A stretch of DNA of 38,432 nucleotides from positions 1-38,432 of the forward strand of contig PAAV01000036.1 of the NCBI GenBank assembly GCA_002699485.1, written 5' to 3'. The stretch comes from Chloroflexota bacterium (lineage in GTDB: Bacteria; Chloroflexota; Dehalococcoidia; Lucifugimonadales; UBA2962). A program made the translations under genes and the position numbers. The notes beneath the pieces are model-generated. The model did no database searches. It was not told the DNA's origin and saw only the letters and a program-made list of their open reading frames with translations. How positions within the stretch are numbered: position 1 is the first letter of the stretch; each line of letters opens with the position of its first letter. Shown piece after piece: positions 36,531-38,432 of the stretch.

Positions 36531-37499
36531 ATGAGAAGGTTAGTTTTCCCATTAATGCTTCTTTCAATATTAATATTTCTTTTTGCTGCGGCTTGTTCCT
36601 CTGAACCTGGAGCAGAGATCGTCGAAGGAGAAAGCAGCGCTAATAAAAGTGGCGAAAGCATAGTCAGCCTTAAAGGAATGATTGAAATTGATGGATCCTC
36701 AACCGTTTATCCTGTTTCAGAAGCTGTCGCAGAGGAATTCCGTAAAACATATCCGAAAGTCCAGGTTAACGTTGGAGTCTCCGGCACAGGAGGAGGCTTT
36801 AAGCGATTCACTGTTGGAGAGACTGACATTTCCAATGCATCACGCCCTATAAAGGACGAGGAAAAAACTGTAGCTCAACAGAATGGCGTGGAGTACCATG
36901 AATTGCTTGTGGGTCAAGATGGCATCTCTGTTGTGGTTAACAAGGCAAATGACTGGGCTACCTGCATGACTGTTAAGGAGCTTAAAATGCTCTGGGAACC
37001 TGGCAGCACTGTGTCGAAATGGTCTGATATTCGCCCTGAATGGCCAGATGACAGGATCAATCTGTATGGGCCTGGCACTGACTCAGGCACATTTGATTTC
37101 TTTACCGAGGAAATCATAGGAGAAGTTCAAGCCAGCAGGTCTGATTTCACAATGTCCGAAGATGATAATGTGCTTGTTATTGGCGTGAATGGAGACAAGG
37201 GTGCTTTAGGCTATTTCGGATACTCATACTATCTAGAGAACAAAAACATGATAAATACCGTAGCTGTAGATGGTGGCGAGGGTTGTGTAGCACCAACCAG
37301 CGAGACAATCGAAAACGGCACATATATACCGCTGGCTCGGCCTTTGCTTATATATGTTAATAAAACAAGTTTAAAGAAGCCAGAAGTAAAAACTTTTGTC
37401 GAATACTATCTGGTCAATGCCGAGCAACTGGTAGAAGAAGTTGGTTACGTTAAGCTCCCAGATGGGGGATACGAAGCTGGCTTAGCGGAAATCAGGTAG
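36531..37499 (+). CDS. pstS: Phosphate-binding lipoprotein, PstS family
   Basis: A 322-residue substrate-binding lipoprotein. The signal peptide ends in the lipobox LFAAAC with Cys22, followed by a short Ser/Glu linker. The mature part has [18 protein letters not shown] and [10 protein letters not shown], the phosphate-contact loops of PstS, then DISNASRPI and later [10 protein letters not shown]. It would capture phosphate outside the membrane for a Pst ABC importer. AAGGAG lies 8 nt before the ATG, and a Pho box precedes the promoter region. No pstC, pstA or pstB follows; a 250-bp gap and an unrelated repeat protein come next. Confidence 0.92.
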
Positions 37500-37748: not shown

Positions 37749-38432
37749 GTGAATAAACTAATGCTCCAAAATTTAAACATAAGCCGAACCTCAATAATTC
37801 ATATCGCAACGCTTATGATGGCAGGTCTGATCGTATACTTTTTACTGTTTAATCCCGGGATGATTTTTGGTCAAGAGCAGCAAGAAGACGAGATGAGTCA
37901 AGATGGCTTTGAAGACGAATTTATTGTCGATGAACCAGAAATCACCGAACCCCAATGGCCGTCAGATCACGACCCAACTTGGTCCAACACACTTGATTCA
38001 GCCTTACAAGATCCTTACTTTGTCGATTTATTAGCTGAGCAAGAGGCCCACGGCGACGCATCTCATTTAGACATGTGGAGTAGTCATACCGATGAGGAAT
38101 CGCACTCATCAGCGCTTAGCAATCACGGAGACGCCTCCCATTTGGATATATGGAGCAATCATAGCGAGGAACAGTCTCACTCAAGTGAATTCAGTAATCA
38201 TGGAGACGCTTCCCATTTGGACATTTTCAGCTCACATGCAGACGAACAGTCTCATGCGAGTGCACTTAGCAATCATGGAGAGATGTCTCATTTGGATATA
38301 TACAGCAGTCATGATGAATCGCAGTCTCATGGTGCTGCAGTTAGCGAACACGGAGACGCATCTCATTTGGACATATGGAGCAGTCACAGCGATGCTGAAT
38401 CGCATAGCCCGACACTTAGTGAACATGGAGAC
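37749..38432 (+). CDS. Histidine-rich 25-residue-repeat protein, exported or membrane-anchored (partial)
   Basis: An open frame from GTG 37749 (or ATG 37761) that runs off the right edge, 228 codons visible. Residues about 16-38 are hydrophobic (IIHIATLMMAGLIVYFLLF) and act as signal or anchor. An acidic stretch rich in Asp, Glu and Pro (about 43-85) follows. From residue 101 the protein consists of exact 25-residue repeats: five complete and the start of a sixth. In every complete copy, His occurs at repeat positions 1, 6, 13 and 19, with G2, S5, L7, D8, S11, S18 and S24 invariant and an aromatic at 10. The His/Asp/Ser pattern suggests binding of Zn, Cu, Ni or similar metal outside the cell; this is inference. 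I recognise no family. Neither start has a strong ribosome site. Confidence 0.85.
   Translation, partial: MNKLMLQNLNISRTSIIHIATLMMAGLIVYFLLFNPGMIFGQEQQEDEMSQDGFEDEFIVDEPEITEPQWPSDHDPTWSNTLDSALQDPYFVDLLAEQEAHGDASHLDMWSSHTDEESHSSALSNHGDASHLDIWSNHSEEQSHSSEFSNHGDASHLDIFSSHADEQSHASALSNHGEMSHLDIYSSHDESQSHGAAVSEHGDASHLDIWSSHSDAESHSPTLSEHGD
38049..38432 (+). repeat. 75-bp tandem repeat array
   Basis: Units begin at 38049, 38124, 38199, 38274, 38349 and 38424, each exactly 75 bp, in frame with the protein. Units are diverged at third positions while key codons are kept, which indicates selection on the protein rather than fresh slippage. The array continues beyond the window. Confidence 0.97.

What the first reader, a model, noticed from the sequence alone, without database searches (positions are those of the whole stretch)
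37749..38432. Undescribed-looking exported protein built of 25-residue four-histidine repeats
The sequence directly shows a signal/anchor, an acidic linker and at least five in-frame 25-residue repeats, each with invariant His at positions 1, 6, 13 and 19 plus conserved Gly, Ser and Asp. Synonymous differences between units imply the residues are under selection. Regular His spacing with Asp and Ser is what a repeating metal site would need, so a surface metal buffer, scavenger or metal-organised fibre is plausible. I recognise no known family.
Basis: partly seen in the sequence, partly recalled or inferred. Interest (0 to 1): 0.85.

Follow-up and report, generated by a model that had tools for sequence, protein, structure and literature searches.

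The report
Giant secreted histidine–serine repeat protein
An uncultured marine SAR202 bacterium makes a very long secreted protein built from long arrays of a six-residue unit that begins with histidine and ends with serine; it belongs to an apparently undescribed family, inherited next to one particular lipoprotein gene, and is probably an extracellular fibre that may bind metals, although neither function has been tested.

Summary
The ORF (ATG 37761, not GTG 37749) is exported, acidic and cysteine-free. It runs in frame off the end of contig C45 of a SAR202 (Chloroflexota) MAG. The "25-residue unit" is a one-deletion variant of a 26-residue unit made of two 13-mers. The real invariant is a hexapeptide, H-x4-S, separated by 0-4 residues. 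Contig C24 holds an in-frame C-terminal piece (369 aa, 55 His, every one followed by Ser at +5), then a ~395-aa lipoprotein gene. Relatives show the same split at contig ends, and one sister genome has PstS and the lipoprotein adjacent with no repeat gene, so both pieces flank one locus. The repeat gene sits directly upstream of this lipoprotein in four SAR202 families; one relative has a complete 2506-codon open frame. His is kept in 866 of 888 slots and never replaced by Asn or Gln. Pfam, NCBIfam and PDB have no match to the window protein. Alphaproteobacterial secreted proteins carry a basic array with the same grammar, perhaps by convergence. AlphaFold gives only a weak beta-solenoid-like model. 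Most likely this is a secreted envelope fibre with a His/Ser lattice; metal binding is plausible but unproven.

The parts
37761..38432 (+). Repeat-protein ORF, 5' part (224 codons), open at contig end; GTG 37749 is an in-frame upstream alternative start
   Evidence: start supported by relatives L022 and L024
37761..37871 (+). N-terminal signal peptide / membrane helix (residues 1 to about 37; cleavage probably near ...MIFG|QEQ, IFA|QEQ in a relative)
   Evidence: sequence; helix 2-30 at pLDDT about 90 in the model; cleavage site judged by eye
37872..37967 (+). Acidic linker
   Evidence: sequence
37968..38048 (+). Conserved pre-array segment HDPTWSNTLDSALQDPYFVDLLAEQEA, opening with an isolated H-x4-S
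   Evidence: conserved with L097 and L109
38049..38432 (+). H-x4-S array; units of 25 residues begin at 38064, 38139, 38214, 38289 and 38364 (last one cut by contig end)
36531..37499 (+). Upstream neighbour: PstS-family phosphate-binding lipoprotein, conserved position in the genus

Best explanation
This is the 5' end of a gene for a very long secreted repeat protein, made almost entirely of H-x4-S hexapeptides joined by 0-4 residue spacers. SHOWN: export signal, open frame, hexapeptide grammar, near-absolute His and Ser conservation against free variation elsewhere, continuation on contig C24, and conserved coupling to a downstream lipoprotein gene in four SAR202 families. INFERRED: the exported chain folds or stacks into an extended beta-rich (solenoid-like or amyloid-like) fibre on the cell surface, retained at the envelope by the co-encoded lipoprotein. 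The regularly placed imidazoles, each paired with a Ser five residues on and usually an Asp/Glu nearby, give the fibre His-specific chemistry, most likely reversible transition-metal binding or cross-linking, possibly pH-dependent assembly.
For: S at H+5: 55/55 (C24), 165/165 (G170), 235/241 (G162), 29/29 and 42/42 (G039). G162 was found through the partner gene, not through the motif, and a permutation test there gives 239/243 against a mean of 51 and a maximum of 73. His slots 866/888, no Asn or Gln. No Cys in the window/genus arrays; D+E 14-23%, K+R 0-4%. Partner lipoprotein directly downstream in G000, G001, G003, G039, G170, G161 and G162; co-occurrence 7 of 9, Fisher p about 1e-10 by genome and 2e-5 by genus. 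Array also attached to a secreted subtilase in G162. The 30-row model of L068 is all-beta with a 26-residue period, pLDDT 67, pTM 0.59.
Against: No metal evidence of any kind. The window's own array models poorly (pLDDT 50). In the L068 job only the best of five models reached 67, and no PDB fold matched at E below 0.001; the top hit, amyloid FapC, has E 0.02 and probability 0.07. Variable spacers (5-10 residues His to His) do not suit a strict solenoid. G002 keeps the lipoprotein without the repeat gene, so the lipoprotein has a role of its own. Only about 4% of SAR202 genomes have the array (repeats are hard to assemble, so this is an undercount).
Confidence: 0.4

Rival explanations
1. Purely structural fibre: His and Ser form hydrogen-bonded ladders in a beta-solenoid or functional-amyloid-like stack, as Gln/Asn/Ser ladders do in curli, with no role for metals.
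For: All-beta 26-residue-period model; weak Foldseek hits are mostly beta-solenoids plus the amyloids FapC and CsgA; array portable between secreted proteins.
Against: No fold hit is significant. Asn/Gln never replace His in 888 slots, unlike typical polar ladders. Spacers vary in length.
Confidence: 0.25
2. Extracellular transition-metal buffer or scavenger (for example copper or zinc), with metal capture as the main role rather than structure.
For: 11-15% His plus acidic residues; strict His retention; in G162 a paralogue of the partner lipoprotein lies beside a Cupredoxin/HMA P-type ATPase, a DUF302 protein and a plastocyanin-like protein.
Against: The copper neighbourhood is missing around the counterpart in sister genome G161 (L180) and was not seen at the array-bearing loci whose neighbours were read. 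No Cys/Met-rich sites. Genus neighbour is PstS. The partner lipoprotein family has no invariant His, Cys or Met in its aligned domain.
Confidence: 0.2
3. C-terminal or whole-protein retention module: H-x4-S arrays bind a cell-wall or matrix polymer and keep secreted proteins at the surface, like other repetitive wall-binding modules.
For: The array ends a secreted subtilase in G162 and ends Alphaproteobacterial exported proteins that also carry a peptidoglycan-binding domain.
Against: In the window genus, G039 and G170 the protein is essentially only the array, so it has no cargo. The Alphaproteobacterial arrays are basic and may be convergent.
Confidence: 0.15

Closest known systems
Curli CsgA and FapC functional amyloids (repeat-based secreted bacterial fibres)
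   Same: Secreted, tandem units, invariant polar residues at fixed spacing, envelope lipoprotein partner (from general knowledge for curli); FapC is the top but non-significant fold hit.
   Different: Invariant residue is His, never Asn/Gln; spacers vary; no sequence match; none of the curli or fap accessory genes were seen among the neighbours examined.
RTX beta-roll repeats
   Same: Secreted acidic tandem arrays, often C-terminal, in which repeated side chains bind metal (Ca2+) and drive folding (from general knowledge).
   Different: No GGxGxDxUx nonapeptide; His/Ser in place of Gly/Asp; no Pfam match.
Alphaproteobacterial exported proteins with SHLKTGSPHNKLQ arrays (Hoeflea, Nitratireductor, Aquibium, Prosthecomicrobium)
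   Same: Same H-x4-S grammar with 0-3 residue spacers (60/60 His in Nitratireductor; 42/50 Ser/Thr at +5 in Prosthecomicrobium).
   Different: Basic instead of acidic; N-terminal ~600-residue, DUF11-like and PG-binding domains; no partner lipoprotein sought there; found with a motif query, so register is ascertained and homology is unproven.
Metal-coordinating His-rich structural proteins (mussel Mfp-4, Nereis jaw Nvjp-1) and His-rich glycoprotein
   Same: Repeated His with acidic/Ser context, proposed metal-organised material or buffer (own knowledge; an HRG review, PMC5372734, came up and only its abstract was seen).
   Different: Eukaryotic, different repeat, no sequence relationship tested or expected.

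Membership tests
RTX beta-roll | GGxGxDxUx nonapeptide repeats / Pfam hemolysin-type repeat | tested here: not met
   No Pfam match of that kind for window protein or relatives; motif absent by inspection
Curli CsgA / Fap amyloid | Sequence match to curlin/FapC repeats | tested here: not met
   Pfam, NCBIfam and PDB sequence searches
Curli CsgA / Fap amyloid | Cross-beta or beta-solenoid fibre fold | tested here: inconclusive
   26-residue beta period in a relative at pLDDT 67; FapC hit E 0.02, probability 0.07
Metal-binding His-repeat protein | Regular, conserved His not replaceable by Asn/Gln | tested here: met
   866/888 slots His, no Asn/Gln
Metal-binding His-repeat protein | Measured metal binding or His clustering in a confident structure | not testable with these tools
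   Models too weak and coordinates not available
SAR202 H-x4-S array proteins (group defined here) | Secreted H-x4-S array directly upstream of the ~395-aa lipoprotein | tested here: met
   G000 (C45 and C24), G001, G003, G039, G170, G161, G162
SAR202 and Alphaproteobacterial arrays as one homologous family | Similarity beyond the shared His/Ser positions | tested here: inconclusive
   hhalign probability 61, E 8e-5, matching mainly S and H positions; opposite charge

The most novel reading that the evidence does not exclude
H-x4-S arrays are a new class of metal-organised extracellular protein fibre in abundant uncultured ocean bacteria, with its own membrane tether, and the same hexapeptide code has been used again (or inherited) with opposite charge in Alphaproteobacteria.
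Probability: 0.25. Interest if true: 0.85.

Novelty: new variant of a known kind. Interest (0 to 1): 0.6.

Why it matters
SAR202 bacteria are abundant in the deep ocean, and the searches made here found no paper on a His-rich surface protein in them. A giant exported protein of several hundred to more than 2000 residues, with an exact six-residue code and a dedicated lipoprotein neighbour, would be a large protein investment for a small-genome cell. If the His lattice binds metals, it gives a directly testable route for how these cells hold trace metals or build a metal-linked coat. The simple code is also attractive as a protein material. The repeats break short-read assemblies, so such proteins are probably undercounted.

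Tried and rejected
Chance or out-of-frame low complexity: rejected (5 matches against 0.03 expected; synonymous variation; conservation across families). Two separate genes or paralogues at C45 and C24: disfavoured by the sister genome with PstS and lipoprotein adjacent and by matched N/C contig pairs in G001 and G003; exact gap unknown. Known families: Pfam and NCBIfam none for the window protein, PDB only insignificant hits; isolated hits in relatives (Eryth_link_C to G039, Vac17 and VirB11 to G170) are short, partial and judged spurious. Plasmid tblastn hits: Peribacillus and E. coli proteins are unrelated repeats on inspection, Cupriavidus CopB and the rest judged from annotation only. Phages: no match. 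IMG/VR motif matches are mostly serine/histidine-rich frames judged by eye to be out of the coding frame, not checked one by one. AlphaFold of the window array: unusable. Literature: nothing found.

Full report
Where it is. The window is a whole contig (C45, 38432 bases) of a 1.9-Mb, 61-contig MAG. The closest named relatives found are SAR202 genomes: QGNM01 'SAR202-II-3' and JAKUTS01 'ALOHA_A2.5_113', whose contigs match those of G003 and G001 in length. Taxonomy: Chloroflexota, Dehalococcoidia, SAR202 cluster. The finding lies at the 3' end, so the gene is cut by the assembly, not by a stop codon.

What the sequence shows. The frame is open from 37749 to the end. Relatives begin at the equivalent of ATG 37761. 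After a hydrophobic signal and an acidic linker comes a conserved segment (HDPTWSNTLD.ALQDPYFVDLL) and then the array. On contig C24 and in relatives the unit is 26 residues, two 13-mers, because the window copies lack one residue in HGDAS. In more distant relatives the His-to-His spacing is 6-10. What hardly ever changes is Ser five residues after His: 55/55, 38/38, 29/29, 42/42, 165/165 and 235/241 in different arrays. In the window it is 16/22, the exceptions being mainly the shortened HGDAS. The G161/G162 arrays were reached through the neighbouring lipoprotein, not by the motif, so they test the rule independently: 239/243 against a permutation mean of 51 and maximum of 73. Ser codons of both classes (TCN and AGY) occur at the same slot in G162, and His uses both codons, so the residues are held by selection. 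A parse of 888 SAR202 slots has 866 His and no Asn or Gln. That parse rewards His, so the percentage is biased upwards, but not the choice among substitutes.

One locus. C24 starts in frame with 369 residues of array ending at a stop, then a ~395-aa lipoprotein gene. G001 and G003 show the same pair of contig ends. G039 and G170 are also split at contig ends. In sister genome G002 the PstS gene and the lipoprotein gene are adjacent with under 150 bases between them, which places C45's end and C24's start around the same site. A complete relative exists: G162 has an uninterrupted frame of 2506 codons followed at once by the lipoprotein. The length in the window species is at least 593 residues plus an unknown gap.

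Partner. The lipoprotein has no Pfam, NCBIfam or PDB match but is strongly conserved (YPSENY.YF, FDESG.QFFL, YDGPFDQLADNY). It follows the array in families f1, f36, f6 and f28. Array and partner co-occur in 7 genomes of about 250 (Fisher p about 1e-10; by genus 2e-5). This count mixes two searches and related genomes, and is a guide only. Neither array nor partner appeared in other members of the phylum sampled (1 of 400 each, the window genome itself). Seven of 250 SAR202 genomes have the array by profile, plus G161 and G162 by the other spacing.

Beyond SAR202. A motif scan of one genome for each of 84,980 species also found Hoeflea, Nitratireductor, Aquibium and related exported proteins with SHLKTGSPHNKLQ arrays. 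They follow H-x4-S and, in Prosthecomicrobium, keep it with variable spacers (42/50 Ser/Thr at +5). They are basic where SAR202 arrays are acidic. Because the query was the motif, register is ascertained. Profile comparison matches mainly the shared S and H. Common descent is undecided.

How it may work. An export signal plus an array, with little else, points to an extracellular polymer. In G162 a second array ends a secreted subtilase with fn3 and GEVED domains, so the array is also a portable extracellular tail. The model of a relative's 26-mer array is all-beta with a repeating strand pattern, compatible with a solenoid or amyloid-like stack, but with one good model of five and no significant fold match. 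I therefore treat the fold as a lead. The lack of Asn/Gln at His slots suggests chemistry only His offers: metal coordination or protonation. A copper-gene neighbourhood occurs beside a paralogue of the partner in G162 but not beside its G161 counterpart (L180), so it adds little.

Verdict. Observation confirmed and extended; interpretation partly supported. The family appears undescribed in the databases and papers searched. Function remains inference.

Noticed in passing
L195:7633-15969 (-) (G162:C31): A 2779-codon secreted subtilase with fn3 and GEVED domains ends in an H-x4-S array (51 of 55 His with Ser at +5).
   Followed up: partly
L179:5294-12337 (G162:C21): Paralogue of the partner lipoprotein beside a Cupredoxin/HMA P-type ATPase, a DUF302 protein and a plastocyanin-like protein with a His/Asp-rich stretch; not seen around the G161 counterpart (L180).
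   Followed up: partly
L096, L101, L088, L076, L111, L093, L080: Exported Alphaproteobacterial proteins with a ~600-residue N-terminal domain, DUF11-like and PG-binding domains and basic SHLKTGSPHNKLQ arrays.
   Followed up: partly
window 36531-37499: PstS-type phosphate-binding lipoprotein; no phosphate permease genes were identified among the neighbouring ORFs scanned.
   Followed up: no
L181:7467-8124 and L064:5066-5551: In genus g91 one genome has a frame-broken remnant of the partner lipoprotein after ABC transporter genes, another has the start of an array protein after similar ABC genes: apparent decay of the locus.
   Followed up: partly
L126:5661-6110 (IMG/VR 3300031256_000003): A viral contig carries a GSSHxxxGSHxxx repeat with the same 13-residue Ser/His spacing; it was not checked whether this is the coding frame.
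   Followed up: no
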